From: Candidatus Avelusimicrobium pecoris
GTDB lineage: Bacteria > Elusimicrobiota > Elusimicrobia > Elusimicrobiales > Elusimicrobiaceae
Length of the DNA stretch: 40,795 nucleotides
Direction of reading: 5' to 3'
Assembly (NCBI GenBank): GCA_902761975.1
Contig: CACWMG010000010.1
Location: forward strand, 1-40,795
A program made the position numbers and the translations under genes. The notes under the pieces were generated by a model, which saw only the letters and a list, made by a program, of their open reading frames with translations, was not told where the DNA came from and did no database searches. Positions 7,125-36,965 of this stretch are shown piece by piece (positions within the stretch are counted from its first letter, which is position 1; each line of letters starts with the position of its first letter).

Positions 7125-7143
7125 TTAACAGGTAGGAGGAGTT

Positions 7144-7368
7144 ATGAAATACATCGTCATGTTGCAAAACAAAGTAGATGCGCTCAAAGCCAATGCCTTG
7201 GGGATGCTCACTAAAAAAGAAGGGCAAAACACGGTAGAATACGTGCTGATGCTCGTAGTAGTAGTGGGGATTGCCTTAGGGGTAGGTGCTGCTGTAAAAG
7301 GTTTTATGCCCGAAGTGTATGAAAACGTCAAGCAGAAAATCTTGGGCGGTATTAACAGCGCCAACTAA
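7144..7368 (+). CDS. flp: Flp-type pilin, probably the major Tad pilus subunit
   Basis: This 74-residue prepilin has a leader of about 35 residues ending KKEGQNTVEYVLMLVVVVG, which contains the G|QxxxEY site for the prepilin peptidase TadV/CpaA. A hydrophobic polymerisation helix and a short tail (KGFMPEVYENVKQKILGG) follow, as in Flp pilins. The strong ribosome-binding site AGGAGGAG (7133-7140) is the best in the operon and suggests high expression. It sits between another prepilin and a TadE-like pseudopilin at the head of the Tad machinery. The leader is longer than the usual 10-26 residues. The peptidase itself is not in this window. Confidence 0.88.
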   Translation: MKYIVMLQNKVDALKANALGMLTKKEGQNTVEYVLMLVVVVGIALGVGAAVKGFMPEVYENVKQKILGGINSAN

Positions 7369-8673: not shown

Positions 8674-9420
8674 ATGACAAATAAAAAATGGATATATGGA
8701 GTATCACTTGCAGTTTTTTTAGCCAGCTTGCTCGCACCGTCTTGCGCGCAGGCCAAAAAAACGCGGCTGGTAGCCGTTAGTGCAGATGTTGTAGAAATTA
8801 GCGGTACTTTGCAAAGTGTAAAAGGGTTTTCTTGGAACCAGCTCTTTGACTTTGAAGAATCCACGATTCCCGGCGTGTTGTCCTTAGGGTCGTTTGAACG
8901 TAAAACCGCGGTTACCACGCGTTTGCGTTTAATGGAAACCGAAGGGCGTGCCCAGGTGCTATCTAACCCCAAAATTGTAACTTCTTCCGGCAGTGCCGCC
9001 AAAATTACGGTGGGTGGTAAAGTCCCTATACCGGTTGTAAATAATCAAGGGGTCGGTTCCCAACTGGAAGAATACGGTATTTTGCTTAACGTGCTTCCCA
9101 CCATCATCCCGGAGCGCAATAATTTAATTGACTTGCAAGTCCAATTATCCGTTTCCACGGTGGACTATTCCCGTACCGTTGTTATTGGTACGGCCACAGC
9201 CCCTTCATTTACCAACCGTGATGTGGAAACGCACGTGGAACTTAACAGCGGGGAAACATTGGTCATTGGCGGCTTAAAAAGCAGTGCGCGCAACGTGAGC
9301 GAAGACCGTGTGCCGTTTTTGGGCAAATTGCCTTTAATTGGCCTTTTATTTAAGAATAAAGACGTGACGGAAGAACAACGTTCTTTGTTCCTGTTTATTA
9401 CGGTAGAAATTGTAGAGTAG
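8674..9420 (+). CDS. cpaC: Tad secretin CpaC/RcpA, short form
   Basis: The 248-residue product has a signal peptide (about 1-27) and then passes almost directly into the secretin core. Matching segments are AQVLSNPKIVTSSG, then ITVGGKVPIPV, LEEYGILLNVLPTI, and the C-terminal secretin signature VPFLGKLPLIGLLF. It forms the outer-membrane pore for the pilus. Canonical CpaC proteins are roughly 450-500 residues, with a BON or N-domain region before the core. Only about 60 residues stand there now, so this is a minimal secretin. The gene looks intact: it has a good ribosome-binding site (GGGATGAG) and no upstream in-frame extension, because cpaB ends 11 bases before. Missing periplasmic functions may be supplied by CpaB or by the FlgD-Ig or TPR proteins. 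Confidence 0.88.
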   Translation: MTNKKWIYGVSLAVFLASLLAPSCAQAKKTRLVAVSADVVEISGTLQSVKGFSWNQLFDFEESTIPGVLSLGSFERKTAVTTRLRLMETEGRAQVLSNPKIVTSSGSAAKITVGGKVPIPVVNNQGVGSQLEEYGILLNVLPTIIPERNNLIDLQVQLSVSTVDYSRTVVIGTATAPSFTNRDVETHVELNSGETLVIGGLKSSARNVSEDRVPFLGKLPLIGLLFKNKDVTEEQRSLFLFITVEIVE

Positions 9421-22070: not shown

Positions 22071-23216
22071 ATGCATCCGCTTACATACCGTGCTTTACGC
22101 ACCTTGCGTAGCCGCCGGGCACAACTCCTCTTGCCCGCTGTGCTTCTGTTACCGCTGTTTGTGCTGGTTATTTATTTACTGGTGGAAGTGACCAAAGTTT
22201 CCATTGCCAAGGTCCGCCACCAGTTTGCATTAGATAACGCTGCTTACTCACAAATGACCACTGTAAGCGTGTTTTTAAACGCGGTGGGGCTATTAAACGG
22301 GCCGCTTCCGTACCGTGTGATGCGCACCTATGATGAACCGCTTAAACTGGTAGACCAGCAAAATACTTACCGCGGGCGGGATAATTTAACCGTATTTGAC
22401 TTGTTTTTCCAAGCGGGGGCCGTGCCTACCGTGGCTCCCGACTATGAATGGGGCAGTAATCCGCCGCCCAAATCCGCCTCGACCGACTGGGGGGTGCATT
22501 ATGTAAAACGGGGGGATTGGGCTACCGGTCCTGACGGAGAGGACGAAGCCAAATCGTATGACCGTAAGGACTGGGAAAAAGAAAACCCCGCCGCCATTAC
22601 GGAGCGGGTAGTGTTAATGAACCGGGAAATCGTGCGCAAACACTACGTATCTGCCAAACAGGTTGGTTTGCCGGCCATGAAAGCCTACTTAAATACCTAC
22701 GTGCAAGTGGGCGATACCTTTAATTTGCAAAAAGATTTGTACCAAAAACTTATTAAAAATGCGGGTATCTTTCGCGAAGGGTACTACCTAAATGTGGATG
22801 ATTGTAAAAAAGGAGAATGTGCCCGTCAAAGTGCCAGCCATTTGGCCCCGTATTTATCTATCCCTACCAAACGGCAAGAGGCCGATGAGCTAATGATGTT
22901 TGTATCCGCCTCGGATATGGCGGGGGGAACCGGCGGTGCGATTGAAATTCCGCTCCAAATGACCGAAATGGGGGCCGAACCGCTATTCTTGTTTGCATAC
23001 GTGGACGGCGCGGGCCGGGCACGGTTGCGCCAGTTAAAACGCGGGGTTACGCTCAAGCAAAATTTCCCGTTGCCTAAGAACCATTTTAATATCAATTTAA
23101 CTAGTAAATACAAACCGTACGTGCGCAATAAAGTCATTATGAGCTGCCCTCGTACCAGTAACAACTGCGTGTGGCCCAACCCGCTACCCAAATATAACGT
23201 AACGCTGAGGCCCTGA
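22071..23216 (+). CDS. TadG-like/pseudopilin-like exported protein
   Basis: This 381-residue protein begins RSRRAQLLLPAVLLLPLFVL, an Arg-rich leader then a single hydrophobic helix (about 22-45), like TadE/TadG proteins. The exported part (about 50-381) has no enzymatic motif that I recognise. It contains a helical stretch (SIAKVRHQFALDNAAYS), a paired-Cys segment (DDCKKGECAR) and a C-terminal SCPRTSNNC pair. TadG proteins are larger minor pilins that may sit at the pilus tip. The order Flp, TadG-like, TadE-like within 2 kb supports this. It starts 1 base after the prepilin and overlaps the next gene by 1 base. Confidence 0.65.
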   Translation: MHPLTYRALRTLRSRRAQLLLPAVLLLPLFVLVIYLLVEVTKVSIAKVRHQFALDNAAYSQMTTVSVFLNAVGLLNGPLPYRVMRTYDEPLKLVDQQNTYRGRDNLTVFDLFFQAGAVPTVAPDYEWGSNPPPKSASTDWGVHYVKRGDWATGPDGEDEAKSYDRKDWEKENPAAITERVVLMNREIVRKHYVSAKQVGLPAMKAYLNTYVQVGDTFNLQKDLYQKLIKNAGIFREGYYLNVDDCKKGECARQSASHLAPYLSIPTKRQEADELMMFVSASDMAGGTGGAIEIPLQMTEMGAEPLFLFAYVDGAGRARLRQLKRGVTLKQNFPLPKNHFNINLTSKYKPYVRNKVIMSCPRTSNNCVWPNPLPKYNVTLRP

Positions 23217-23755
23217 TGAAGAAACTATTTTCTTATAACCGCCGCGGTCAAGCCACTACCGAAATGGTCCTCCTGTTTCCGGTACTAATTATTTTTGTGC
23301 TTTTTATCATTAAAATTTTTGGGCTTTTAGTACTAAACCAGAAAATGCAAATTGCAGGCACCTATGCGGCCCGGCGCTATCAGCTCCAGTCCCACGTGAC
23401 CGATTATTATGAAAAAGGGTGGGACCGCCGCTTCCTTAAAAAGGATGTCCAGCGCAAAGTAGAAGAAATCGTAGGCTTTAATAACCCGGGGATGCGTCAA
23501 TTTTTAAGTCTAAATAGTTTCCGCTTGGATGTAAATACGGATAATAACTGGACCAAAATTACCCTTACCGCCAACACCAAAGCCCCGCGTATTAAGTTTT
23601 TGTGTAATTACGATAAAGACCGTGTGTGCGACCGGGACCGTTATTGCCTTAAAGGCTATAGTTTTTTGTGTGAAGACGGAGCCCGCATCCAAGTTATCAA
23701 ATACGCCGGTAAAAACGAACGTCCCGCCCCGTACGCCCGCCCCGAAAACCGCTAA
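23216..23755 (+). CDS. TadE-like pseudopilin (second copy)
   Basis: This 179-residue protein begins with NRRGQATTEMVLLFPVLII, a TadE-type processing signal and hydrophobic helix (about 12-35). The body has a Cys-rich patch (residues about 125-146: CNYDKDRVC, then YCLKGYSFLC), which could form two disulfides. It resembles the pseudopilin at 7372 only in its N-terminus. It starts in the stop codon of the preceding gene. The spacing suggests it closes the second Tad-related operon. Confidence 0.8.
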   Translation: MKKLFSYNRRGQATTEMVLLFPVLIIFVLFIIKIFGLLVLNQKMQIAGTYAARRYQLQSHVTDYYEKGWDRRFLKKDVQRKVEEIVGFNNPGMRQFLSLNSFRLDVNTDNNWTKITLTANTKAPRIKFLCNYDKDRVCDRDRYCLKGYSFLCEDGARIQVIKYAGKNERPAPYARPENR

Positions 23756-24005: not shown

Positions 24006-24042
24006 GCGTCAAATAAACATTACAGGACTATTTTTTAGGCCT
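24000..24042 (+). repeat. 43-bp direct repeat, copy 2, abutting the -35 box
   Basis: This matches 23769-23811 with two differences (AAATAAAC for AAATGAAC, and CAGGAC for CAGGGC). Its last base coincides with the first T of the -35 hexamer (24042), the usual place for an activator site. Confidence 0.92.
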
Positions 24043-24070
24043 TGACAAATTGCCCTTGGCTATCTATACT
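24042..24070 (+). promoter_or_regulatory. Strong sigma70 promoter for the novel membrane-protein operon
   Basis: TTGACA (24042-24047), a 17-base spacer, then TATACT (24065-24070). It is the best promoter in the window. Transcription would start near 24077, giving a leader of about 83 nt to the ATG at 24160. Confidence 0.8.
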
Positions 24071-24159
24071 AGTAGTAAGGTGTATCACTCTGTGTTTGAG
24101 CGCATATTTGTATGGTGCGGGTCAACAAGAGTAGTTTTTATTTGTATAGGGTTAGCTAT

Positions 24160-25500
24160 ATGTTCACATTTAAACCAAAGAAAGTTTTTGAAAAACTAAA
24201 TAAGATGGACCGCAAACAAGCCTACACCATTGGTGCGATTGCCGTGGTAAGCATTGTGGCCCTACTCATGTTAATTTCCGCCATGACCAGTGGCGAAAAC
24301 GGCTCTTTTGAAGGGATGAAAGCCCGCGGGTATGACCTAGCCAATATGCCCTTTGCTACGGACGAAGCGGAAAAATATTTACTGGCCAACGCCTACCCGG
24401 ATATGCGGGAAAACGGCTCTACGCTCTTGTACTCGGCTGAAGAGAAACAAGCCCGCCAGGAGGCCGACGAAGAGGCCGCTGAAGAAACCGAAGAATCCTC
24501 TTTTGAGGGGGATAGTGCTGCGGAAAATGACTCCTATGCTAGCCGTGATTCGGGCTACGGTAGTTATAGTGGATCGGGCCGTGGGGGCCGCGGCGGTGGT
24601 AGCAAGACGGAAATTGGCCAGTTGGGCACTGCCAATATGGCTCATTCCGGGGGGAGTGGTGTAAATGCTACGTATGGTCCGTCGGGGGATTTCCGGCAAT
24701 TTAAAGGGCGTGAAAACCGCGGTAATGAGGCCCCGGTTGCGTTAAAGACCAATAATGCCCGTAACGCATTATCGCAATTTCGCTCCGGTAGTTTAGCCGC
24801 CGCCCATATCCAGCAAAATAAAATGGCTAACGCCGGTAAAGCCCTTTATGGGGGTAATGTAGCTGGCAGTGATGCGTTTGGCAAAGACGGGGTAGATTTA
24901 AGCAAATTGCAAAATGGGGGTTTTACGCTAGATACTTCTGCTCCCCCTACTTCCACGGACTTGGACAATTTAGATAAACAAGTGGCCGACGCCGCCAAAA
25001 AAGCCGAGGAAAAAAAGAAGGCAGAAGAAAAACGCTCCTGGTTTGAAGACTTGCTGATTAACCTGGCCCAGCAAGCGGCCCAGTCTTTGATGGGTGCTGT
25101 AATGGACGGCGTAGGGGACAGCATTAAGGGGGCTATTAACGGAAATGCTGCATCACGTGCGGCCCGCAAACAGTACGGGGCTCAGGTGGCCGGGTCCAAT
25201 TATGAAAATCTTTCTGCAGAAGATAAGGCCTATTTGGCCAGTGTATCGAAGGGGCAGGATGAGTGGAATAAAATGAAACCCAAAGAACGTGCCAAACTGA
25301 TGAGTCATTCTACGGTAGCTGTTACGCGTGGGCAAGAGGCCAAAGTAGAACAAATCGGCAAGGCACAGGGATCCACGGATACAGCTAGGTATTTTCAACA
25401 GAAAAAAGACGATGAAGGAAAAGTCCCAGATGGACAAGTGCGGGACGCTAGTGGGAGACTTTGTGATTCGGGGAAATTAAAAGATGGTAAGTGTCCGTAG
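24160..25500 (+). CDS. Large single-pass membrane protein, unknown family (pair A, copy 1)
   Basis: I choose the ATG at 24160 over 24112 because AGGG stands about 9 bases before it and the resulting basic N-terminus (MFTFKPKKVFEKLNK) fits the sister proteins. The 446-residue protein has one transmembrane helix (about 21-41). An acidic region rich in E, D and S (about 85-135), a Gly/Ser-rich stretch, and TEIGQLGTAN near residue 150 follow. Then come an Ala-rich coiled coil (about 265-310), a helical region (WFEDLLINLAQQAAQSLMGAV, about 295-325) and a C-terminus ending with CDS...GKCP. The order of features matches the N-terminal part of the 31469 protein: EIGxL, AAA-rich helix, GVDL, W-rich helix. 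I cannot name a family. Confidence 0.7.
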   Translation: MFTFKPKKVFEKLNKMDRKQAYTIGAIAVVSIVALLMLISAMTSGENGSFEGMKARGYDLANMPFATDEAEKYLLANAYPDMRENGSTLLYSAEEKQARQEADEEAAEETEESSFEGDSAAENDSYASRDSGYGSYSGSGRGGRGGGSKTEIGQLGTANMAHSGGSGVNATYGPSGDFRQFKGRENRGNEAPVALKTNNARNALSQFRSGSLAAAHIQQNKMANAGKALYGGNVAGSDAFGKDGVDLSKLQNGGFTLDTSAPPTSTDLDNLDKQVADAAKKAEEKKKAEEKRSWFEDLLINLAQQAAQSLMGAVMDGVGDSIKGAINGNAASRAARKQYGAQVAGSNYENLSAEDKAYLASVSKGQDEWNKMKPKERAKLMSHSTVAVTRGQEAKVEQIGKAQGSTDTARYFQQKKDDEGKVPDGQVRDASGRLCDSGKLKDGKCP

Positions 25501-25588
25501 AAATACTTTTTGTACGCAATTCTAACCTGTGATAAATATAGGTTGTTTTCTTAAAAAATTTGAACAGCACTATCTTAGGAGACATAGT

Positions 25589-27223
25589 ATGAAGATCTTT
25601 AAATGGCTAAAAAGCAAATCGGGCAAGTTGCCTGTTACATTAGCCCAGGCGGCGGGGATTACCGCCGTGGTGGGGGCTGCCGGTTTTGGCGCGCTGAGTT
25701 TTTTAAGCTCTCCTGCGGATAATAACAATACTTTTTTACCTCCCTCTGCCAACCAAGGGCAAGTGGTCTATGTGGCCCAAGGGGGCGGTGGTGGCCAGTA
25801 CGAGGCAAATGGGGAGGTTGGCTCGTCTTTTAAGGCGGCTCCGTCCCGCTCTATTCGGCTTGCCAACCAAGAAGCCGCCCGCCAGGCGCAAACCCGTGCG
25901 TTAGAAGAATCCGCCGGACAGTCCACTTATCAGCAACCGGGGGACGAGGTCAACCCGCAGATGCCAAAAGCCTACCAGGTTTCCAATGCGGATTTGGGCC
26001 TGGGGATGGGCTCTAATGCCGATAAACAGTTAAATGGCTCTTTAGAGGTGTTTTCTAACATTCAAAACCAACTTGCCGGCGTTACGCAAGCCGTGCATAA
26101 TGCCCAGGCCCAAGCAGGTGCCGGGCAAGCGACAGGGACTACTGCCTCAGGCAATACGTCCGGCCAAACGGCGGCACAATTAGCCAGTGCATCGCGCAAT
26201 TGGGGCAATAATGGGTTGACCCGGGCGGGGGGTGGCAGTGGCTCTGCTAATTCATTTGTGGTGCAAAACAGCGGCAAAAACGCGGATGATAAAACCGCCG
26301 CCGCGGCCGTTGCCCAAGCGGGGGATGCTATTGCCCAAGCGCAAGCCGCTATGGCTAAAATGCAGGAAGGCACCCGTATGCGTTCCCGCGCTAATTTTGG
26401 CAGTTCGGAAGGGCTCGGCCAAGATAAAGACGCCGCCGCTCAGCGTGCGCGCCGTTTTGGCAAAGGCAGAGACGAACTTTCTTTTATCCGCAAACAAACC
26501 GCCGCTATTAACGCCAATAAAACCAATGCGGCTAACGAAGGCGGGAACCCGTTCTTAGCCAGCACTAAAATTTCGGGCGGGCTTACGGTTAGTGGGGATA
26601 ATGTAACCACCGGTACGGGCTCCTCGGGCGATTTACGCAGTACCACGGATACTCAATTGAAAGGCATTAAAGGCGGTTTAGGCAATATTGAATCCCAATT
26701 GCAAGAGCGTACAAAACGCCGTCATGAACTACGCAAATGGATGTGGATTGCGTTGCCGCTTGCCATGGCTATGATTCCAGTGATTGGCGCATTGGTCGCG
26801 CTGGCCAGATTACTCGCACTCAACCCTTTTACGGCGGGCGTAGCTGCAACGTTGAGAGCTATTGCTTATGCGTTAGCTGCTGTAACTTTGTATCCGGTCA
26901 TCCAGTTGCTCATTTCGGGTATTTCTTACATGGCCCAATACGGAGCTGACGGATATTCCATTTTTGCGGCGGCTTTAGGGGCCGGGTTAACAGTGGGCGT
27001 TGGTTTAGCCCTATGGAGTTTTAACTTTGGTGCGTTTTGCTATGATATGCCCGTGTGGGTATGGGGCGCAGGCATTGCCGCTGGATTTGGTGGCTCCACC
27101 TTGTTTAAATTCTTATCTGAAAATGGCGATGGCTATACGGATGAAGAACTGGATGATAATAAAGCAGACGAGGATATAGACAAAAGGGAGGAAAACTTGC
27201 GTGATGGAGGGGGTAAACAATGA
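25589..27223 (+). CDS. Gly/Ala/Gln-rich membrane protein with C-terminal multi-helix domain (pair B, copy 1)
   Basis: The ATG at 25589 is preferred to 25529 because TAGGAGA lies 6 bases before it. The 544-residue protein has an N-terminal anchor (MKIFKWLKSKSG, helix about 18-38). A long low-complexity exported region (about 40-290) is followed by a conserved block at about 293-350 (RDEL, ANEGG, FLAS, SGG, SSGDL). A basic segment leads to four or five transmembrane helices (about 385-510), and the tail is acidic. The conserved block recurs in the 27529 product. The layout suggests a membrane-embedded channel or scaffold with a large exported linker. No known family is recognised. It overlaps the next gene by 4 bases (ATGA). 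Confidence 0.7.
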   Translation: MKIFKWLKSKSGKLPVTLAQAAGITAVVGAAGFGALSFLSSPADNNNTFLPPSANQGQVVYVAQGGGGGQYEANGEVGSSFKAAPSRSIRLANQEAARQAQTRALEESAGQSTYQQPGDEVNPQMPKAYQVSNADLGLGMGSNADKQLNGSLEVFSNIQNQLAGVTQAVHNAQAQAGAGQATGTTASGNTSGQTAAQLASASRNWGNNGLTRAGGGSGSANSFVVQNSGKNADDKTAAAAVAQAGDAIAQAQAAMAKMQEGTRMRSRANFGSSEGLGQDKDAAAQRARRFGKGRDELSFIRKQTAAINANKTNAANEGGNPFLASTKISGGLTVSGDNVTTGTGSSGDLRSTTDTQLKGIKGGLGNIESQLQERTKRRHELRKWMWIALPLAMAMIPVIGALVALARLLALNPFTAGVAATLRAIAYALAAVTLYPVIQLLISGISYMAQYGADGYSIFAAALGAGLTVGVGLALWSFNFGAFCYDMPVWVWGAGIAAGFGGSTLFKFLSENGDGYTDEELDDNKADEDIDKREENLRDGGGKQ

Positions 27224-27519
27224 AGTTAAGCGCTCAGCAAATACAACGTTTACGTAATGCTTCCAAACGTACGATTCCTCAATTCTCAAAAAGTACGATA
27301 TGGACGGTACGAGGGATAATTTTCCTTTTACTTGCGTTGTGGATTATGGGGGGAGTTTACTTAAGTAATCAGGTCAAGCAGGATGAACAACGTATAGAGC
27401 AGTCCCGCATAGAGGCGGCCCGCCGGCAAGAGTTTCAACGCCGTGGGGCGAAGTACCGGCAGGACTTGCAAAATTTTAACCAAGGCGTTCGCTCACGCAA
27501 CGTCTTTGACGGAAGATAG
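27220..27519 (+). CDS. Small single-pass membrane protein with charged coiled coil
   Basis: This 99-residue protein has a basic N-terminus, one transmembrane helix (about 28-50), then a strongly charged helix (EQRIEQSRIEAARRQEFQRR, about 57-78). It starts at the ATGA overlap with the preceding gene, so the two are likely translated together and may interact. Its form, a small single-pass protein with a coiled coil, resembles accessory subunits such as YajC-like or FtsL-like proteins, but I see no sequence match. Confidence 0.65.
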   Translation: MKLSAQQIQRLRNASKRTIPQFSKSTIWTVRGIIFLLLALWIMGGVYLSNQVKQDEQRIEQSRIEAARRQEFQRRGAKYRQDLQNFNQGVRSRNVFDGR

Positions 27520-27528
27520 GGAGGCATT

Positions 27529-29037
27529 ATGAATATACTTCGCTTTTTAAAAAGTACAAAAGGGGCCATTAAGCCACTTAACGCCCTGATTATTTCGGGG
27601 GTGGCTGGGGTTGGCTTTTTCTATGTAGCCAATACAGCCGCGGATAGACATATAGAGGCGGACCGTGCTACGCGTTCCTTAACCAGTATTTCGCAAACGG
27701 CCCCACAAGCGGGGATGCACCGTAGCGGTAACTTACTTACCTCTATTAACGTGCGCGACGGCCGCAACCAATTAGCCACCGCCGACGAACGTGCCGCTAT
27801 GGAAGGCAATAATGCGCTCTCGCGCTACAATGCCAACCAACGTGCTTTAGGAGAAATGGACGGTGCGTTAGGCCGTGCCGCCCAATTTTCGGATTCAGAC
27901 GCGGGCCTTAACACAGGCAACCGCAACGCTGTGCAAGAGCCTACCCGCTTTGAAGTAGGTAACCCCAACGCCTCTGCAGGGGGTATTGTAGTGGAAAGTC
28001 GTCCTGCCGCCTCTTCCGGTGGTGCCGCCCCACAAGGCCAAGACCGTCTGGCCAATGCTTCTATTACGCGTGCTTCCGGCAATTCGTTTAACGCAACTTC
28101 GGGTGCTGTTTCAGGTGGTATTGCTACACAAGGGGGAATACGCTCGGGTAGTGAAGGGCGCCGCTTATCGGGTGCCATGCCGGGTGGCAGTAACATTGTT
28201 TCCCAACGCGGGTTGGACGGTGCGTTAGCCAGCAACCGCAATCCGTCTTCCTTTGGGCAGGGCCGTAATGCCCGTTTAGGCCGGGGCCGTAACGCGCGGG
28301 GCGACCGGGATGAGCTTAAAGACATTGTCAAACGCTCTGCGGATGCGGCAGGTAATGCTAACGCCTCTGCTAACGAAGGTGGCCGTGCTTTCCTAGCCAA
28401 CGCCCGAAATTCCGGTGGTGTGTCCGTAGATGGCGGGGAAGATATGACACGCGGTGCCTCGTCGGGTGATTTAGCCGCTCCTACCGCCCATAAATTAAAA
28501 GCCGTAGGCAATAAACTAAATGAAGTAGATAAAAAAATAGAAGAAATGAACCAGGACCGCCGTAGTTTGACTACGCAGTTAATTGCCACGGTATTAGGTT
28601 CTATTGGTATGATGGTAGCGGGTGCTTTAATTTTAGGCAGATTAGATAAAACAATAGAAGCGTGGAAATTTGAAGCAGCAGTGGCTACCTTGCCTGCAGA
28701 TAAGGCAGCTTGTTTAGCCATGGTTAAAATGTTTACGCTTAGACGTTGGCTTACTGCTGCAGTCATGATGGCGGCTGTAGCTGCCGCCAATACGCTTTTA
28801 TTTATCAAAGCGGCCGAATTTATGGACCGTTACAACAGCATGGGCGGCACTGGGATTGCCAAATTGGCCGTCATTTTATCGCCGATTATGGTGGCAGGTA
28901 TGGTATATACAGCTATTAAACCTGGAATTTGGAAGAGCTTGGGCACTAAAATTTGGACCAAAATCAAATCGGCTTTTGATCCTGTGGGTATGCTTACAAG
29001 CCAGGTTACCAACGGATTTATGGGGTTATTTAAATAA
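27529..29037 (+). CDS. Gly/Asn-rich membrane protein with C-terminal helices (pair B, copy 2)
   Basis: This 502-residue protein has a strong ribosome-binding site (GGGAGG). It begins MNILRFLKSTKG with an anchor helix (about 20-38), followed by a long Asn/Gly/Ser/Arg-rich exported region (about 40-255). A block at about 259-315 (RDEL, ANEGG, FLA, SGG, SSGDL) matches the 25589 product in order and spacing. Three C-terminal transmembrane helices follow (about 350-370, 400-425, 440-465). It is a paralogue by domain order, but the helical part is only loosely similar and there are fewer helices. No enzymatic motif is visible. Confidence 0.7.
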   Translation: MNILRFLKSTKGAIKPLNALIISGVAGVGFFYVANTAADRHIEADRATRSLTSISQTAPQAGMHRSGNLLTSINVRDGRNQLATADERAAMEGNNALSRYNANQRALGEMDGALGRAAQFSDSDAGLNTGNRNAVQEPTRFEVGNPNASAGGIVVESRPAASSGGAAPQGQDRLANASITRASGNSFNATSGAVSGGIATQGGIRSGSEGRRLSGAMPGGSNIVSQRGLDGALASNRNPSSFGQGRNARLGRGRNARGDRDELKDIVKRSADAAGNANASANEGGRAFLANARNSGGVSVDGGEDMTRGASSGDLAAPTAHKLKAVGNKLNEVDKKIEEMNQDRRSLTTQLIATVLGSIGMMVAGALILGRLDKTIEAWKFEAAVATLPADKAACLAMVKMFTLRRWLTAAVMMAAVAAANTLLFIKAAEFMDRYNSMGGTGIAKLAVILSPIMVAGMVYTAIKPGIWKSLGTKIWTKIKSAFDPVGMLTSQVTNGFMGLFK

Positions 29038-29045
29038 TATACAGG

Positions 29046-29067
29046 GGGCGCACCCGTGCGTGCGCCC
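29046..29067 (+). promoter_or_regulatory. GC-rich hairpin before the 29079 gene
   Basis: GGGCGCAC (29046-29053) pairs with GTGCGCCC (29060-29067) around a 6-base loop. No T-tract follows. It occupies the short gap where a ribosome-binding site would be expected, and none is visible, so it may control translation or stabilise the upstream mRNA. Confidence 0.45.
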
Positions 29068-29078
29068 ACAAATTATCT

Positions 29079-30596
29079 ATGAGTGAGCATAAGCCTTTGC
29101 CGCCTAATTTCGTACCGGAAGAAGATCTCAGCATGCATGAGAACTTCGCCCCTATTATTGCGGAAAACGGGCTCATTCGCCAACCGGAAGTGCCGGACAA
29201 AGAGACCATTTTAACAGCCTCATTAACCCGCATTGATACCTTGCAGGATTTGGTACAAATCCGCCAGGCGGAAAAGAAGGAAAAAACGCTTCCTCCCCAG
29301 CCAGTTCCGCAAGAACTAACTTCTTCCGCGCCAGAAGCAAAAACAGTTCCCGCGCCTGCTGTGCCTTCTAATCCGGAACATTCGTTTGCGATCACTTCTG
29401 AAGAAAAACCAACGTTGGACTTATCTTCCGATCCCCAAGAAGGTGCGGATGGTAAGCGGTTAGGAGAGGAGAAAATTGCACAAACCACCACTTTGCCTGC
29501 CGTTATCCCAACCGCTACCACGGCACTGATGACGACGGGAAAAACCAAACACCGCAAATCCGGTTTATTTAAAAAACGTAAAAAGGCTAAAAAACATGCC
29601 AAACCACAGGCTCAGCCTCCGGCTACACCGCCGGCAACCCCTGCGTCCAAACAGGGCCATAATTCCCGGCGTTGGCCGTGGGTATTGGCTGTTTTATTAT
29701 TTTTGTTTTTAGGAAGTATTACGGGGTTAGTTCCGGTGGAAAAAATTCCGTTTTTACGTAACGTTGCGTATGCCATGGGCTTTACGAAGGACGATACTTC
29801 CCGTATTTCTTTTTTACGGGTTCTACTGGCCTGGGCTGATAAAACCATAGGACTACCGGGGGACTGGAGCGTGGATTCTTCTTCTCTGCTTGCGGGTAAA
29901 TTAGGTTCCGGCTTAGGCATTTCCACGGACGCAGAAAATATAGCGGATTTAAATGCCCGTATGACCCGTTATAATGGGCAAACCAGTTTAATCAATATGG
30001 CCGCTTTGCAAAAATTACAGCGCGAAAAAGGCCGCCCGCAAGACGGACTTCTCGGGGCGGTAATGCCGGCTCCGGGGCAGGCCGAGGCTCAAGCGGCCCC
30101 GGCCCAACTGATAGGGGACCACGTAGAAGTGCGCACGGAATCTACTCGCGTGCAGGGGGATGTTTATTTTGGCAGTGATGCCGGTGCTATTAACCGGGAT
30201 GCGCGCGACGCGTACGATTCTTCCAAAACACTTGCTAAAGTAAAGAATCCGCACATTGCCGACGGAAAGCCCATTGACTGGTTTGTAAACACCACCCAAC
30301 GTTTAATGCAAACTACGGGGCCGCTAGGGGGTGCCAACCGCCAGCTGGAAGGAACGCGTATTTCTTGGGGGGATAACGTTTCAACGGTGGGAGACCGCAA
30401 AGAGCGTAGGGATTTGTATCGGGCGTGGATTACCAGCCGTATGTCTAAATATACCTCTAATCTTATGCTTAAAAAATCACTGGCGGATGTCGGCTTTTTA
30501 GGGGCCGATATTCCTATGATGGTCGCTATGTCTGTAGGCGGTGGGGTACAAATAGATGCCGCTTCTTTTCAAGAAGACCAGGAAGGATGGGCGTAA
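29079..30596 (+). CDS. Single-pass membrane protein with basic/Pro-rich cytoplasmic part, frameshifted near its end
   Basis: This 505-residue frame starts with an acidic, then Pro-rich cytoplasmic segment (about 1-195) and a Lys-rich patch (RKSGLFKKRKKAKKH). One transmembrane helix (about 198-218) and an exported region (about 220-505) without known motifs follow. Its end, EDQEGWA then stop (30594-30596), looks premature. In the +1 frame a Cys-containing domain continues directly (RKCQEALNTAGNRI). Removing one G from the GGG at 30589-30591 would read EGWRKCQEAL and give one protein of about 728 residues. No ribosome-binding site precedes the ATG. The family is not recognised. Confidence 0.65.
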   Translation: MSEHKPLPPNFVPEEDLSMHENFAPIIAENGLIRQPEVPDKETILTASLTRIDTLQDLVQIRQAEKKEKTLPPQPVPQELTSSAPEAKTVPAPAVPSNPEHSFAITSEEKPTLDLSSDPQEGADGKRLGEEKIAQTTTLPAVIPTATTALMTTGKTKHRKSGLFKKRKKAKKHAKPQAQPPATPPATPASKQGHNSRRWPWVLAVLLFLFLGSITGLVPVEKIPFLRNVAYAMGFTKDDTSRISFLRVLLAWADKTIGLPGDWSVDSSSLLAGKLGSGLGISTDAENIADLNARMTRYNGQTSLINMAALQKLQREKGRPQDGLLGAVMPAPGQAEAQAAPAQLIGDHVEVRTESTRVQGDVYFGSDAGAINRDARDAYDSSKTLAKVKNPHIADGKPIDWFVNTTQRLMQTTGPLGGANRQLEGTRISWGDNVSTVGDRKERRDLYRAWITSRMSKYTSNLMLKKSLADVGFLGADIPMMVAMSVGGGVQIDAASFQEDQEGWA

Positions 30597-31272
30597 ATGC
30601 CAAGAGGCACTTAACACAGCCGGTAATCGCATTCACAATACCGTTCAAGAATTTAATACGTTGGTAAAATCCAATTCGCAATGGGATTTCCCGGCTAATT
30701 GTACCGAAGCATATCCGGCCGCACCCAGTTATCAGCAAAGCCGTTTTCAAGCGGGTATTAGTCGTATTGCGTCCTATTGTAAACAAATAAACACCGATTA
30801 TACCACCTTAGAAAACAAATGCTATTTACAGGTCAACCGTCCTCAAAACGTATGTGATAAAGGGATTCAAACTACCTATCAAGCGCACTGGAATAATTTT
30901 GTAGGTGCTTGCAAAAACGAATTTGATAAAGCCTTCAAAAAATGGTTTGACGAGATGTGGTGGCCCCAAAAAGGGGCTCAGTACGCCCCGCTGACCCGGG
31001 AACAAGTGTGGGAGGCTCAGCGTGAGCAGTTACGCCCTGGATATCAAAACGGGGCCTGGCAACAGGATGGTAAACAGTATAAGCAAAAAAATTATATTGA
31101 CAGCTATGTTACCTTTAATAATTCCACCAATTATCCTTCTAATGGAGAAGTAACGATGGCAGACGTGGTAAAGGACCAACAGGGTGGTAGTGGAAATTAT
31201 TTCCCCACCGAGGATAAGGATAATATGTCGCAAATGATTGTGAATCAAATGACAGAAAATAAAACATTATAG
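30556..31272 (+). pseudogene. Cys-containing C-terminal part of the preceding gene, out of frame
   Basis: This 238-codon frame begins inside the 29079 gene with no convincing ribosome-binding site or signal peptide. Yet it carries six spaced Cys residues (KCQEA, NCTEA, SYCKQ, NKCYL, NVCDK, GACKN), which suits an exported domain. The simplest reading is that it is the missing C-terminal part of the 29079 protein, separated by one inserted base. The real coding portion would then begin at about 30589. Other readings are programmed frameshifting, or a separately translated overlapping gene. The region is helical with Trp-rich stretches (WFDEMWWPQ). Confidence 0.6.
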
Positions 31273-31289
31273 ATTTTACAAATAGGGGC

Positions 31290-31317
31290 TTGAAAAAATG
31301 AGAAATAGTGTTATAAT
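31290..31317 (+). promoter_or_regulatory. sigma70 promoter for the 31469 gene
   Basis: TTGAAA (31290-31295), 16-base spacer, perfect TATAAT (31312-31317). The start would be near 31324, giving a leader of about 145 nt. Confidence 0.7.
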
Positions 31318-31323
31318 AAAAGT

Positions 31324-31468
31324 AAGAGATGTTTTGTAAGAGCTGTTGTGTAATGGGTAACCAGTTGCACGCAGCGCGTAATTTATTTTTGTACCCGCGG
31401 GGCTAGCACGGCCCGCACAGACGTAAAACGCAGTACCTACAGTTTTAGTTTATTAGGAGGAACCTGTT
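31324..31468 (+). other. Structured 5' leader of the 31469 gene
   Basis: The leader contains a hairpin pairing GCGGG with CCCGC around a TAGC-containing loop (about 31396-31415), preceded by TGTACCCGC. AGGAGG sits about 8 bases before the ATG. The TACCCGC...ACGCA.T.CC pattern loosely recurs in the leader at 895-950. I do not recognise it. Confidence 0.35.
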
Positions 31469-34400
31469 ATGCCAGAGGAAAAGAAAGATAGTTTCACCTT
31501 TAGCGATAAGATTAAAAACAGCAAACCTGCTGGCAGTAAATCTTTCGCTAAATCGTCCGCCAAAATTGGCCGGGACGGCAAACCCAAGGCAACGCTTTTT
31601 GAGCGTACCCGCCGGGATGCGCCGTTCTTTATTGCCGCTTTGGTTGCGCTGTTGTTATTGCCATTTTTGTATAAGTACAGCGGCCAAGCGACCGAGGATC
31701 AAACCTTCGCTCCCGGAATGGAAAGCGCCGAGTTTGACCCCGAACGCTACGGCTTTGATACGGCCATGGTGGAAGACCCGGACGGGCAAATTGCCCAGTT
31801 AGCCGGGCGCGATTCCCTCTCTTTAATTAAAGGGTGGGGGAACAACCAAGAAGAAGACTATGCCCGCGACGATATGGACCTGGACGCCTCTGCCTCTTAC
31901 GAGGGGGACGCCTCCGGCGAATATGCAGCCGAACGGCACTCTTCCTCTGAAATGGACGTAGAAGAAAATACGACCAACATTTATAAACGCCGTGCCCGTG
32001 CCGGTACCCGTGCCGCTTTCCGCCGTACTCAAATTGGTACGCTTAACCCGGCCGGATTGCGTCGCCCGGGTGGTAGCCGTTTAGGCATTAACAATTGGGG
32101 CGGCGGCCTTAAAAGTGCGGCCCGTAAAGTAGGTTCCGGCCCGCGCCAAGCACCTAAACCGGTTTCTTTGCAACCGCTACGTGCAGCGGGTCCTGCCCGT
32201 TCCTCCTTTGGGCAAGGTGCCGCCCAGGCGGCCCGCAGAGGGTTAGACAACATGGGTAAAGCCAACGCCGTGGAAGCGTTGCGCGACGCGTATGTAAAAC
32301 CCGTGGACCCGACCCGCACCGGCGGAGTTGATTTGTTTGCTGACGGACGCGTGGGTGGCGGCGGTAAATTGGACCATCGCATCAACATTGGCAAAGGTGA
32401 AACGCCGTGGTGGTGGGACATGATGAAAACCCGCATGCAAGAAGAATGGATGGCCCGTTTCAAACGCAAATGGAACTGGATTAACTGGATGGACAAGTTA
32501 GCCCAAAACATTTTAGGCAACCTCTTAAATTGTATTATTACCGGCGATGACGGTGGTGATGTGGATAAATTCTTGGGTATTAGTGTAGGGGGTGGCAGTG
32601 ATCCTACTTGCTGTGGTGTCTCCGAATCCAAAGCAGCCTCTAAGAAGGAAATTGAGGAAGCCGGCGGTTTTGAAAAATGGTGTAAAATTAAAACTAACCA
32701 AGCAAAACTCAAAGCACTTGGGTATAGCTGTTCAACAACCTATAAGGGCGGTGTACAGACTGACGTTGCTCTAGGCCCAGTTGAATCTCGTTTGAAATGT
32801 TTAGGGCTTAACGTAGGTGGTTATGCATCTGGTTCGTTAGGTTTAAATGGTGCCGGCATGGACTGTGCCGATATGCCTAACTACAACGTTATCCCGTCTG
32901 GGCAAGCGCGCAAATGGAACATTTATACCTATGTAGTGGCGCGTAACTACTTCCCGGAGGCGTTAAAGAATGAGTTGAATTTGACTTCTTTAAAGACTAG
33001 AAATGGCAAGCAAAACTTGCTTTGTGCCTCTATGGACCGTGCGCACGGTGGTAGCTCTTTGAACCATGCCGATATTACAGGCGGTGTGGGATATGTCAAA
33101 GCACAACAAGACGCCGCTAGACAGCATGTGATTGCGCAATCCAGGGCTACATCTAACGTGCCTGAGGAACAGCAAGAAATCCGCGAACGCACGCTGGAAT
33201 TGGACCAAGAAGCCTTGGGGGACAGCTGTGTGATTGTGGTTTCCCGCGGTAATGTGCTCCCGTACGAGGCCATGAAAAACAAAATTATGGACCTCTTCAA
33301 AGAATTAGGGGCCAATGAAACGCAGGCTGAAAAAGCGTTCTATCAATTAGATATTATGTACGTGAGCTCTTTTGCGGCCAAGAACAAACTCGCCTACGCG
33401 CAATGGTTTGAGTCGGGCCATCACTTAAAAGGCCTGCTCCCTATGCCGTATTGGGAGTTTGAAAACGCCTACATTGAACACAAAAAGATTACGCACAAAA
33501 AAGATGGCAGCCGTGACAACGTTTACCATAAAAAACGCTGGCGTATTGAAGGCGTAGATATGTTGCGTGGACCTATTTGTTATTACGACAACCTCAACTT
33601 TGAGTGCGGCCCCGAAGATACGGCCACGGCACAGTTGCACTTTAAGCAAGAGAGCTTTAAAGGTGGTTCGGGTGTAAAGCCGTCGGTAGAGGATGTACAA
33701 GTATCGGCTGAGTTCCGCTATCTGGATGAATCCAACGCAGCGGTGGAACAACCCATGATTAACCCGGATACCCGTGCTGACAATGGTTTTACGTTCACCT
33801 ATACGTTTAGCCGTATTTATGAATCAACCAAAGTCAAAAAATCCAGTGAAACCCTCAATCCGGATGGGTTAGTGGGGAATATTATTTGGAGAGCCCAACG
33901 TGGCAAACAAAAGATTGAGAAAGTCTGCCCGCTTAACCTCTCCGGGGACGGCTACACCAGATATGTGCGTGAGCGCGAGTGTACCAGCCCGCAACAAAGT
34001 GCCACATGCTGTGACAAACTGATGGGGGCAACCCCGCACCATTGGGACGCCAGCAAACCGGTTGGTAGCCAGTGTGTGGATGACACTCCTGTGCCGCCGG
34101 TGGACGGGAAAATGACGCGTTTAGCCCCGGTGCTCTCGTGGGTTCCTTTTAACGGCAAAGTAGAGTGCCGTGAAGAAGCGAGTGACGCTGCTAACCCGGC
34201 TGAAAAAGTGTTCGGTAGCTGTGATAAAGTACCGGGTATCGTCAAAAATCAGGACCAAAACTGCGGTTCTCAAATTCCGCTGATGATGGACTCGCAAGCC
34301 GCCGCCACGTTCGTGCAAAACGTTGTTAAAAAATACAACGAAGCGCACCCCAACGCGGCTAAAAAGTTAAGCGATAAGTTCTACGCCAATAAATACCCCA

Positions 34401-35209
34401 CGGACGGGGAATTTGTAGATGCGTTGTTTATTGCGAAAGACTTAGGCATCACGCAAGTTCCATCCTCGGCTGTGTGTGAGCTGGCACGTGACTTTGTACG
34501 TATGTCCAAAGATAAACACGCCGGAACTATGCCGGTGGCCGGTAGCAGTGATGACTTTAAAGGCTTAAAACGCTACTACCGCAATGAGCTTGGTGCGTTC
34601 TTGGCCTATGTACACCCTACTTCTATTCTTTACCCGAATAAATATTACGGTAAAGAAATGAGCGTGTGCGACTGGCGTTTCTTGCCCGAACCTGCCCAGT
34701 GCAGTGGGCGCAAGAGCACCATGAAGATGGGGAAAGCCTATTATTTTAACTATTACAACGACTCTAAAAACAAAGCCAGTTTAGCGGCTTATTTAGCTTC
34801 GTTTGATGATGTTAGAATTCCCAAAACTTATCCGCTTGCGCAACTAGTTCAAGGGCATGCTGATTTAGCCCACAACTGTCCTGCGGATAATTGTTCCTCT
34901 ACCCGCAATCAGTACAACAAAGATAACTACTTTGGGCTAATGATTTCGGATACGGACGCTACGGATGGCCAAGGTAACGCGTGTGTCGCGTTTGCGGGCA
35001 ATGCCACTATGTCTGTGGACAAGGCACTGGAATACGTGCAAACGGTCTGTAAAGTTGGCTTAGATGCCAAACCGTACGGCAACCAATACAGCAACCGTCC
35101 GGGCCCGAAAAAATACGTGAACGGGCAAACCTTTACCCGCACTACCACTAGCCGGTCTGGTAATGACGGTAGCACCCAAAAACAATCGGGTGGTCAAGGT
35201 AGAGGTTAA
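31469..35209 (+). CDS. Giant single-pass membrane protein with Cys-rich exported domain (pair A, copy 2)
   Basis: This 1246-residue protein has a cytoplasmic basic start and one transmembrane helix (about 53-70). An acidic D/E/S-rich region (about 120-165) and TQIGTLNPAG (near 187) follow, then an Arg/Ala-rich region, GVDLFADG (near 287) and a Trp-rich helix (WWWDMM...WMARFKRKWNWINWMDKLA, about 310-345). A very large exported C-terminus (about 370-1246) has many Cys residues, some in pairs (TCCG, TCCDK). N-terminal order matches the 24160 product. The ribosome-binding site is the strongest here (AGGAGG). I see no enzymatic motif or known fold. The final region is Ser/Gly/Gln-rich. A surface, tip or adhesive structure is possible (inference). 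It is flanked by its own promoter and a good terminator. Confidence 0.72.
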   Translation: MPEEKKDSFTFSDKIKNSKPAGSKSFAKSSAKIGRDGKPKATLFERTRRDAPFFIAALVALLLLPFLYKYSGQATEDQTFAPGMESAEFDPERYGFDTAMVEDPDGQIAQLAGRDSLSLIKGWGNNQEEDYARDDMDLDASASYEGDASGEYAAERHSSSEMDVEENTTNIYKRRARAGTRAAFRRTQIGTLNPAGLRRPGGSRLGINNWGGGLKSAARKVGSGPRQAPKPVSLQPLRAAGPARSSFGQGAAQAARRGLDNMGKANAVEALRDAYVKPVDPTRTGGVDLFADGRVGGGGKLDHRINIGKGETPWWWDMMKTRMQEEWMARFKRKWNWINWMDKLAQNILGNLLNCIITGDDGGDVDKFLGISVGGGSDPTCCGVSESKAASKKEIEEAGGFEKWCKIKTNQAKLKALGYSCSTTYKGGVQTDVALGPVESRLKCLGLNVGGYASGSLGLNGAGMDCADMPNYNVIPSGQARKWNIYTYVVARNYFPEALKNELNLTSLKTRNGKQNLLCASMDRAHGGSSLNHADITGGVGYVKAQQDAARQHVIAQSRATSNVPEEQQEIRERTLELDQEALGDSCVIVVSRGNVLPYEAMKNKIMDLFKELGANETQAEKAFYQLDIMYVSSFAAKNKLAYAQWFESGHHLKGLLPMPYWEFENAYIEHKKITHKKDGSRDNVYHKKRWRIEGVDMLRGPICYYDNLNFECGPEDTATAQLHFKQESFKGGSGVKPSVEDVQVSAEFRYLDESNAAVEQPMINPDTRADNGFTFTYTFSRIYESTKVKKSSETLNPDGLVGNIIWRAQRGKQKIEKVCPLNLSGDGYTRYVRERECTSPQQSATCCDKLMGATPHHWDASKPVGSQCVDDTPVPPVDGKMTRLAPVLSWVPFNGKVECREEASDAANPAEKVFGSCDKVPGIVKNQDQNCGSQIPLMMDSQAAATFVQNVVKKYNEAHPNAAKKLSDKFYANKYPTDGEFVDALFIAKDLGITQVPSSAVCELARDFVRMSKDKHAGTMPVAGSSDDFKGLKRYYRNELGAFLAYVHPTSILYPNKYYGKEMSVCDWRFLPEPAQCSGRKSTMKMGKAYYFNYYNDSKNKASLAAYLASFDDVRIPKTYPLAQLVQGHADLAHNCPADNCSSTRNQYNKDNYFGLMISDTDATDGQGNACVAFAGNATMSVDKALEYVQTVCKVGLDAKPYGNQYSNRPGPKKYVNGQTFTRTTTSRSGNDGSTQKQSGGQGRG

Positions 35210-35231
35210 GTAAGAGCTGTTTATTTGAAAG

Positions 35232-35259
35232 GGCGGGCCTAACGGCCCGCCTTATTTTT
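35232..35259 (+). terminator. Intrinsic terminator after the 31469 gene
   Basis: GGCGGGCC (35232-35239) pairs with GGCCCGCC (35244-35251) around TAAC, followed by TTATTTTT. This is a strong Rho-independent terminator. Confidence 0.93.
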
Positions 35260-35273: not shown

Positions 35274-36965
35274 ATGCGGGGCATTCTATTTTTTTTAATC
35301 GTGTCTATAGGGGTAGGGGGGACCTTGCCTGCAAAGGCCGCTTTTCCGTTTTCATTTCGCAAAGCGCAAATCAAAACCGATTATTCCCAAACGGTGTGGG
35401 ACCGTATGATGCAGGAGCAATCTATGTTGGAAATGCGCCGCGGCATGGGGGAAATGGCCTCGTCCAATTACCAAGCCGCGTCCAACAGTTTTGCCCGCGC
35501 GGTTATCAAAAACTCCAAGGACCCGCTCGGCTACCTTTTGCTAGGGGCCTCGCTTTATTGGGCGGGCAAGGTGGACGACGCCATTAGCGAATATAACGAG
35601 GCATTGCGCCTGGACCCCAAAAACCCCATGGCCTATCAGCTTTTAGGTATTGCCGCCGGGTGGAAAGGTAACGTGCAGGAAGCGCAAGACTATTTTTTAA
35701 AAGCCAATTATTTTGACCCTAACAAGGCCGACACCCACATGAACCTCGGCTCCACGTACGCCGTCCAGCGTAATTGGGATAAAGCCCTGGAACACTTCCG
35801 CCAAGCGGTGGACCTCGCTCCGCGCGAAGCTCTCTACCACTACCAATTGGGTACGCTGTATGAAGAGCTTGGGCGCGACGTACTGGCCGAAGAATCTTTT
35901 AAAAAGGCCTTACACTATTTTTCCGGATACGAAGACGCCATGCTTAGCTTAGGTGCCTTGTACGAAAAACTAAGCCGCCCCCAAGAGGCCCTTAAATACT
36001 ACAAGCGTGCCGTTAAAACCAAACCCGGCGATTTTGTAGCGCGGCTTCGCTACGGGTTTTTGCTCGTTAAACAAGGGCAACTGGCCCAAGCGCGCGCGGT
36101 CATAGAGCAAGCTTTTTCCATTACGCGCTTTAAGCAGGATGGGCTTGCGCTTAATGCCGTGTACCGCGCTAGCGGACACACGGCCCAAGCGTTTGAACAG
36201 CAAATCAACCAGTTTAAGGAAAGCTTACAGCAAGTGCCCGTGGGCAAAGCTATTAACGTGGAAGTTACGTTGGAATATCAGCCCGCCGTTCCTTCTCAGC
36301 CACAGCCTACGCCGCGTGCCAGTACATTTGAACAGGCCTATGAACGCCTGCAAGCCGGTGGCCCTTTGCAAGCAAGTTCCGCACCGCAAACGCAAACGTT
36401 TAAGCGCATTTTTAGCTTCCCGGGTGGAAATGAAAAATCCCGCCAAGAACAAATTGACAATTTAATTAACGGCTTAAAACAAGCGGTTGCCAGCGCGCCG
36501 GAAAATTATAACGTAAGTCTTTCTATGCAAGGGCGCACGTTGGATTATAATTCGCCTTCTGCCCTGTCGCAAAACCGCACTACGCCGCCCAAGGCCGTTT
36601 ATGACCCGCGCATTGTCGGCAACGATATGGGGCTATGGGTAATGGGCCGCACGTGGATACAGTTTGTGGACGAGGCTCAAGAGGATTTAGCTGAGTACAA
36701 AAAATGTCCTACAGATAATACATGCGATTTACTCAAAGGCTTGGCCGCCCTGGCCCGCGGTAACGGACAGCGCGCGTTAGAGCGTTTTTCCAGTGCCGCC
36801 AAAACCGCTCCGCAGGACCCACTTGCCCAACTGGGCTTAGGCACGGCCGCCGTCATTAATGGCGAGGATGAAAACGCAATTGCTTTTTATAAAAATGCGC
36901 TTGGTTTAGACGAAAAAAACAAAATAGCCGCTAAAAATTTAAAAGTACTTACGGACGACAAATGA
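35274..36965 (+). CDS. Exported TPR-repeat protein
   Basis: This 563-residue protein has a signal peptide (about 1-22, cleavage near AKA) and a series of TPR repeats at about residues 60-270: NYQAASNSFARAVIKN, DDAISEYNEALRLDPKNP, WDKALEHFRQAVDLAP, LAEESFKKALHYF and PQEALKYYKRAVKTKPGD. A less structured part with Gln/Pro-rich spacers follows (about 335-440), then a last TPR region (about 470-560). The role is probably a scaffold in envelope protein complexes; the partner is unknown. It overlaps ksgA by 4 bases (ATGA), so the two are co-translated, which need not mean a shared function. Confidence 0.75.
   Translation: MRGILFFLIVSIGVGGTLPAKAAFPFSFRKAQIKTDYSQTVWDRMMQEQSMLEMRRGMGEMASSNYQAASNSFARAVIKNSKDPLGYLLLGASLYWAGKVDDAISEYNEALRLDPKNPMAYQLLGIAAGWKGNVQEAQDYFLKANYFDPNKADTHMNLGSTYAVQRNWDKALEHFRQAVDLAPREALYHYQLGTLYEELGRDVLAEESFKKALHYFSGYEDAMLSLGALYEKLSRPQEALKYYKRAVKTKPGDFVARLRYGFLLVKQGQLAQARAVIEQAFSITRFKQDGLALNAVYRASGHTAQAFEQQINQFKESLQQVPVGKAINVEVTLEYQPAVPSQPQPTPRASTFEQAYERLQAGGPLQASSAPQTQTFKRIFSFPGGNEKSRQEQIDNLINGLKQAVASAPENYNVSLSMQGRTLDYNSPSALSQNRTTPPKAVYDPRIVGNDMGLWVMGRTWIQFVDEAQEDLAEYKKCPTDNTCDLLKGLAALARGNGQRALERFSSAAKTAPQDPLAQLGLGTAAVINGEDENAIAFYKNALGLDEKNKIAAKNLKVLTDDK

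What the first reader, a model, noticed from the sequence alone, without database searches (positions are those of the whole stretch)
24160..35209. Operon of large unknown membrane-anchored proteins beside a Tad pilus, built from two paralogous pairs
Five large proteins and one small one, none matching a family I know, lie together with their own promoters. Each has a basic N-terminus, a transmembrane anchor and a long low-complexity exported part. 24160 and 31469 share the order acidic region, EIGxL/QIGxL, Ala/Arg-rich helix, GVDL and Trp/amphipathic helix. 25589 and 27529 share RDEL, ANEGG, FLA, SGG, SSGDL in the same order, then membrane helices. Together with the small 27220 protein this suggests a duplicated two-part unit forming an envelope-spanning complex or a secreted surface structure, perhaps a pilus-associated extra apparatus.
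Basis: partly seen in the sequence, partly recalled or inferred. Interest (0 to 1): 0.85.

Follow-up and report, generated by a model that had tools for sequence, protein, structure and literature searches.

The report
Unknown envelope operon linked to pilus
A set of membrane-anchored proteins that match no known family, conserved across much of the bacterial phylum Elusimicrobiota and found almost only in genomes that also carry a Tad pilus, probably forms an extra cell-envelope complex for that pilus and is preceded by two previously undescribed RNA hairpins.

Summary
A1 (24160), B1 (25589), S (27220), B2 (27529), C (29079) and A2 (31469) are real genes of no known family by Pfam, NCBIfam, PDB-profile or Foldseek tests, kept in the same order beside TadG/TadE in relatives. 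B1/B2 are true full-length paralogues. A1/A2 are not such a pair: they share only a ~115-column segment, and A1 also shares ~65 columns with B1/B2. ORFs 29079 and 30556 are one gene broken by a frameshift. Better profiles find A2 in 187 of 341 Elusimicrobiota genomes; 179 of these carry the Tad marker RcpC, against 96 of 154 genomes without A2. In one sister family the operon A1-B-B-C-A2 lies apart from Tad genes, so it is a separable module. Each of its two promoters is followed by a covarying RNA hairpin absent from Rfam; the first follows the genes when the system is split. Best explanation: an Elusimicrobiota-specific inner-membrane-anchored, periplasm-spanning complex that supports or regulates the Tad machine. 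The envelope part is well supported; the Tad role is inferred from co-occurrence and linkage.

The parts
24042..24070 (+). Promoter P1, TTGACA-17-TATACT, before A1-B1-S-B2-C
   Evidence: 11 of 12 consensus positions; 10 or more of 12 in 23 of 25 orthologous loci, 0.6 expected
24082..24141 (+). Structured leader RNA element A (5-bp outer stem, invariant UGUUUGAG/GGGUCAnCA inner part, variable P2 stem, U-rich tail)
   Evidence: covariation: 98.7% of cells paired, 21 double-changed cells against 4.2 shuffled; R1 hit 71 bits; no Rfam match
24160..25500 (+). A1: bitopic protein with low-complexity linker holding the shared segment and a C-terminal amphipathic helix
   Evidence: TM 19-46; conserved in loci; the upstream ATG at 24112 lies inside RNA element A, so 24160 is the likely start
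25589..27223 (+). B1: N-terminal TM, long linker, shared segment, C-terminal multi-helix membrane domain
   Evidence: TM pattern; full-length paralogue of B2
27220..27519 (+). S: small bitopic protein with a charged, coiled-coil-like tail
   Evidence: TM 25-52; small TM proteins at the same place, or just after B2, in relatives
27529..29037 (+). B2: paralogue of B1
   Evidence: AlphaFold2: residues 320-485 mostly with pLDDT about 90 or more; helices 316-385, 389-438, 442-463, 465-486
29079..30596 (+). C, 5' part: about 200-aa cytoplasmic N-tail, TM 199-223, conserved juxtamembrane segment
30556..31272 (+). C, 3' part (Cys-rich, probably helical end) in another frame; gene broken by a frameshift near 30590
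31290..31317 (+). Promoter P2, TTGAAA-16-TATAAT, before A2
   Evidence: 10 or more of 12 in 28 of 42 loci
31335..31389 (+). Structured leader RNA element B
   Evidence: covariation: 100% of cells paired, 24 double-changed cells against 8.3 shuffled; one full-length copy per genome, just upstream of A2 where compared; no Rfam match
31469..35209 (+). A2: about 50-aa cytoplasmic tail, TM 49-72, linker with shared segment, invariant PWWWDMMK, large Cys-containing region with beta-sandwich parts
35230..35253 (+). Predicted intrinsic terminator after A2
   Evidence: 10-bp stem with 8 G-C pairs then T-run
35274..36965 (+). Exported TPR protein, neighbour of A2 or C across the family
   Evidence: TPR domains; follows A2 in g1 and g15, follows C in g12
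22071..23216 (+). TadG-like protein upstream of the operon
   Evidence: synteny; no Pfam hit, pilin-like N-terminus by inspection
23216..23755 (+). TadE minor pseudopilin upstream of the operon
   Evidence: PF07811 E 2.1e-5, over cut-off; TadE also near A1 or B genes in L140, L157, L161, L165

Best explanation
The operon encodes an Elusimicrobiota-specific, inner-membrane-anchored complex that spans or fills the periplasm and serves the Tad pilus machine as an accessory scaffold or regulator. Shown by sequence: the families, their conservation, predicted topology, shared segments, Tad co-occurrence and linkage, promoters and covarying leader RNAs. Inferred: each protein is held in the inner membrane by its N-terminal helix and extends a flexible linker into the periplasm; the segments shared by A1, A2 and B1/B2 let the subunits co-assemble; B returns to the membrane through its helical domain and forms a base; C and A2 carry the Cys-containing outer parts, A2 reaching towards peptidoglycan or outer membrane; the assembly sits beside the Tad basal body and stabilises or regulates it. 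The leader RNAs set the amounts of the two mRNAs.
For: A2 in 187 of 341 phylum genomes and 38 of 100 genera, so an old conserved system. RcpC is present in 179 of 187 A2+ genomes against 96 of 154 A2- (lists compared by hand; Fisher p 2e-15 by genome, 0.001 by genus, not corrected for phylogeny). RcpC and A2 lie 14-24 kb apart in 29 of 30 genomes of the window's genus that show both on one contig, and TadG and/or TadE sit next to the operon in f1, f14 and f15. In f15 and g14 genomes the Tad secretin or RcpC is 27-40 kb upstream on the same strand. When the set is dispersed (G117: A1-B-S, A2, and C-TPR-ksgA at three loci) all parts are kept. RNA element A sits in front of A1, and again in front of the second A1 or the separate A2, which ties these genes together. 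Topology. Shared segment.
Against: In f2 the operon is unlinked from Tad in the genomes inspected, as it is in g12 genomes. Many Tad+ genomes lack A2, so Tad does not need it. No interaction, localisation or expression data exist. The canonical alignment role is taken by RcpC (PMC12307814), which is present here. Co-occurrence counts are confounded by shared ancestry. The short secretin is found in A2-less genomes too, so it gives no specific support to a replacement-of-periplasmic-domain role.
Confidence: 0.5

Rival explanations
1. An independent envelope or secretion complex of Elusimicrobiota that merely neighbours Tad in some families because of ancestral gene order; its function is separate (for example cell-envelope integrity or export of a substrate).
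For: Unlinked from Tad in f2 and g12; many Tad+ genomes lack it; downstream TPR and ksgA neighbours are not Tad genes.
Against: Nearly strict co-occurrence with Tad (179 of 187) and repeated adjacency to TadG/TadE in f1, f14 and f15.
Confidence: 0.3
2. A surface-exposed or secreted adhesin layer: the long low-complexity and Cys-containing parts of A2 and C are displayed outside the cell, perhaps at the pilus tip or base.
For: Large, fast-evolving Cys-containing A2 C-terminus with beta-sandwich regions; Tad secretin available as an exit.
Against: N-terminal tails of about 50 to 200 residues before the TM helix in A2 and C fit neither a cleaved signal peptide nor a prepilin; B returns to the membrane.
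Confidence: 0.12
3. Peptidoglycan-tethered envelope stabiliser: A2 ties the inner membrane to peptidoglycan, as OmpA-like inner-membrane anchors do.
For: Two outgroup A2 C-termini give sub-threshold OmpA (PF00691) hits, E 8e-4 and 0.012.
Against: No OmpA signal in the window's own A2 nor in the other A2 proteins scanned (1 of 33 members, an outgroup).
Confidence: 0.08

Closest known systems
Tad (type IVc) pilus machine, including the RcpC/CpaB alignment complex (PMC12307814; in situ architecture PMC13170226)
   Same: Present in the window (two Flp-like pilins, TadE, RcpC, secretin, TadZ-TadA fusion, TadB, TadC, TPR protein) and co-occurring with the operon; RcpC is likewise a single-TM periplasmic protein
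   Different: A1, B, C and A2 match none of the Tad component families; the known Tad set needs none of them and many Elusimicrobiota Tad+ genomes lack them
Kil, the Tad-like killing apparatus of Myxococcus (PMC8460266)
   Same: A Tad-like core with many extra genes of unknown function and an unusually short secretin
   Different: The paper highlights FHA-domain proteins and predicted OM lipoproteins; neither was recognised here. No similarity search between the two protein sets was made
VirB6/TrbL family (PF04610) of type IV secretion
   Same: Polytopic membrane domain plus a large extra-membrane part, like B
   Different: Only one of 28 B proteins gives a sub-threshold hit (E 0.02)
OmpA-like peptidoglycan-binding proteins (PF00691)
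   Same: Weak signal at the C-terminus of A2 in two outgroup genomes
   Different: Absent from the window's A2; not a defining feature of the family
Known leader RNAs and riboswitches (Rfam 15)
   Same: Promoter-proximal covarying hairpins in an mRNA leader
   Different: No Rfam match; restricted to one system in one family, unlike metabolite riboswitches

Membership tests
Tad pilus core components | A1, B, C or A2 match a Tad component family | tested here: not met
   No Pfam or NCBIfam hit; no HMM-HMM similarity to the TadE or TadG-like neighbours
Tad pilus accessory | Genomes with the operon carry Tad | tested here: met
   179 of 187 (compared by hand)
Tad pilus accessory | Physical linkage to Tad genes across families | tested here: inconclusive
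   Met in f1 (g1, g14, g15, g16), f14 and f15; not met in f2 and g12
Tad pilus accessory | Required for piliation | not testable with these tools
   No experiments available
Type IV pilin-like proteins | Short leader with prepilin-peptidase site followed by a hydrophobic helix | tested here: not met
   Sequence inspection: N-tails of about 50 aa (A2) or 200 aa (C), and about 45-75 aa in the f2 homologues of B, before the TM; no pilin family hit
VirB6/TrbL (PF04610) | Profile match over cut-off | tested here: not met
   Best E 0.02, one of 28
OmpA-like (PF00691) | Profile match over cut-off at the A2 C-terminus | tested here: not met
   20.2 bits at best, cut-off 27.2, only in outgroup genomes
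Any solved fold | Significant Foldseek or sequence match in PDB | tested here: not met
   A2 Foldseek best E 2.6e-3 with low TM-score; B2 best E 0.06; no sequence hit below E 0.3
Paralogous pair B1/B2 | Homology along the whole length | tested here: met
   100% probability, E 2.7e-54; against controls
Paralogous pair A1/A2 | Homology along the whole length | tested here: not met
   Only about 115 columns
Structured RNA (elements A and B) | Covariation beyond shuffled and slid controls | tested here: met
Known Rfam family | Match at gathering score | tested here: not met

The most novel reading that the evidence does not exclude
A previously undescribed class of multi-protein envelope machine of the class Elusimicrobia, built from otherwise unrelated membrane-anchored proteins that share a common interaction segment, coupled to Tad pili, and controlled in one family by two single-locus structured leader RNAs.
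Probability: 0.35. Interest if true: 0.8.

Novelty: new variant of a known kind. Interest (0 to 1): 0.62.

Why it matters
Tad pili are widespread, yet how lineages have modified them is poorly known. This would be a lineage-wide addition to a Tad machine made of protein families with no recognised relatives. One genome holding all parts has the size of the cultured Elusimicrobium minutum (identification by size only, from memory), so it may be experimentally testable. The two leader RNAs are new structured RNA candidates with one target system and could explain how a split operon stays co-regulated.

Tried and rejected
OmpA-like end of A2: only sub-threshold hits in outgroup genomes, none in the window. 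VirB6-like B: one sub-threshold hit in 28. 'The operon replaces the missing periplasmic domains of the short Tad secretin': the short secretin (about 240-280 aa) is found in A2-less genomes as well, so there is no specific support. Fold search of A2 and B2: no significant match. First impression that the system is confined to the window's genus was wrong; better profiles extended it to seven families. First impression that g12 genomes lack B was wrong: in G117 and G118 a B-like protein follows A1 but escaped those profiles. Rfam search for a known riboswitch in the leaders: none. A separate 238-aa protein at 30556: rejected as the 3' part of C. No search outside the phylum was made beyond the single genome-contig scan, which used only A2.

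Full report
What is there. The window is contig C10 of a 1.24-Mb Elusimicrobiota genome; its relatives are rumen and gut Elusimicrobium metagenome bins. A Tad locus occupies 6.9-15.7 kb (two small pilin-like ORFs, TadE, RcpC, a 248-aa secretin, a 771-aa protein joining a ParA/MinD-type domain to the T2SSE ATPase, two T2SSF proteins, a TPR protein), followed by two-component genes, a TadG-like protein and a second TadE. Then come A1, B1, S, B2, C and A2. None matches a Pfam family; A1, B1, S, B2, A2 and an intact C orthologue reach no NCBIfam cut-off; profiles of A2, B and C find nothing convincing in the PDB.

Are they real and conserved? A first search with the window's A2 found it in 46 of 48 other genomes of the genus and none of 32 in the next family. 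Loci fetched from public genomes show the order TadG-like, TadE, A1, B1, S, B2, C, A2, TPR, ksgA again and again, with S after B2 in one subgroup. A profile of the A2 N-terminal 400 residues spanning several genera then found A2 in 187 of 341 genomes of the phylum. In sister family f2 an A1-B-B-C-A2 operon is kept in the genera inspected (L104, L105, L148-L155; one locus has a third, short B-like ORF and some have an unrelated gene inserted). In f14 and f15 B genes and A2 lie together, in L140 with A1 and a TadG/TadE pair upstream, in L157 with TadE.

Two pairs? B1 and B2 are full-length paralogues, but the tree of their C-terminal halves puts the two B genes of the window's genus together, apart from the two B genes of f2, so the duplications look separate; other genomes have one or three copies. 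A1 and A2 share a segment of about 115 columns, twice as strong as the best shuffled control, and A1 shares about 65 columns with B1 and B2. The f2 family shows the same A1-B sharing independently (97 columns). The simplest reading is a common module in otherwise different proteins.

A broken gene. ORFs 29079-30596 and 30556-31272 together correspond to one 700-779-aa protein in close relatives and to contiguous positions of the C model. Whether the frameshift is real or an assembly error cannot be told here.

Topology. Hydropathy gives one N-proximal helix in A1, B1, S, B2, C and A2, and several more at the C-terminus of B. AlphaFold2 gives a confident helical membrane domain for B2 residues 320-485 and low confidence for most of the rest. 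A2 residues 290-1246 are only moderately predicted (mean pLDDT 69.5), with beta-sandwich-like parts but no significant structural match; B2 has none either.

The Tad connection. RcpC, a Tad marker, is found in 275 of 341 genomes. I compared the two lists by hand: 179 of 187 A2-positive genomes have RcpC, 96 of 154 A2-negative ones do. Fisher's test gives p 2e-15 by genome and 0.001 by genus, uncorrected for shared ancestry. In 29 of 30 genomes of the window's genus that show both genes on one contig they lie 14-24 kb apart. In f15 genomes G221, G237 and G240 and in G120 the Tad genes are 27-40 kb upstream on the same strand. In f2 and g12 the two are unlinked in the genomes inspected. So the operon is an add-on found almost only with Tad, but Tad exists without it.

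A dispersed but complete set. Genome G117 is one contig of 1,643,562 bases, which I recall as the size of Elusimicrobium minutum Pei191 (not checked further). There the parts lie at three places: A1-B-S, A2 and C-TPR-ksgA. Keeping all parts after dispersal argues for a functional unit.

Regulation. Strong promoter matches precede A1 and A2 and are conserved in orthologous loci, but not before B1, S, B2 or C. Between promoter and start codon lie two different conserved hairpins. Both show covariation beyond shuffled and slid controls; single-sequence folding is only weakly better than chance for the window's element A (z -1.0), and better for element B (z -2.3) and for element A of other genomes (z -3.4, -4.7). 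Rfam has no match. Element A occurs in 81 genomes, all in family f1, as a rule once per genome. In the operon loci I examined it lies at the A1 promoter; in L063 and L109 each of the two tandem A1 genes has its own copy, and in G117, G116 and G118 one copy precedes A2 and the other A1. For the remaining genomes the downstream gene was not checked one by one. Element B is found in 38 genomes of the window's genus, upstream of A2 where compared. Such restriction to one system speaks against a general metabolite riboswitch; a protein-binding autoregulatory site, an attenuator or a 5' mRNA stabiliser are all open.

How it most likely works. An inner-membrane base made by B, with A1, C and A2 anchored around it, tethered by flexible linkers and assembled through the shared segment; C and A2 provide the outer, Cys-containing parts. 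In Tad systems RcpC is the known conduit between membranes (PMC12307814; see also PMC13170226), so this set would be an additional scaffold or regulator. The Kil system of Myxococcus (PMC8460266) shows that Tad cores can recruit many unknown proteins. Tad systems had been reported in Elusimicrobia (PMC6668835). Everything about assembly and function here is inference.

Limits. Most genomes are fragmentary bins. Only A2 was searched in the named genome collection, and nothing was searched systematically outside the phylum. Co-occurrence was not tested on a tree.

Noticed in passing
window 24082-24141 and 31335-31389: Two covarying leader RNA hairpins without Rfam match, tied to this system in family f1; mechanism unknown (autoregulation, attenuation or mRNA stabilisation).
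   Followed up: partly
window 8674-9420: Tad secretin of only 248 aa (essentially the secretin domain); short homologues (about 240-280 aa, one frame of 346) were the best hit in all 18 genomes searched across the phylum, with or without the A2 operon.
   Followed up: partly
window 9430-11745: A 771-aa protein joining a ParA/MinD-type (TadZ-like) domain to the Tad ATPase.
   Followed up: no
window 1010-6937: Large protein with FlgD Ig-like domains and a weak CHU_C (type IX signal) hit next to a UPF0164 (PorV-like) protein, possibly type IX-like secretion; they stay near the Tad/A2 region in L028.
   Followed up: no
window 35274-36965: Exported TPR protein; best NCBIfam scores to PilW-type TPR proteins are below cut-off; neighbour of C or A2 across family f1.
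   Followed up: partly
window around 30590: Frameshift splitting gene C; real mutation or assembly error not decided.
   Followed up: yes
window 6941-7368: Two small Flp-like pilin ORFs in tandem before the first TadE.
   Followed up: no
L140:15764-17473 (minus strand): FtsH-like AAA/M41 protease between TadE and A1 in an f15 genome.
   Followed up: no
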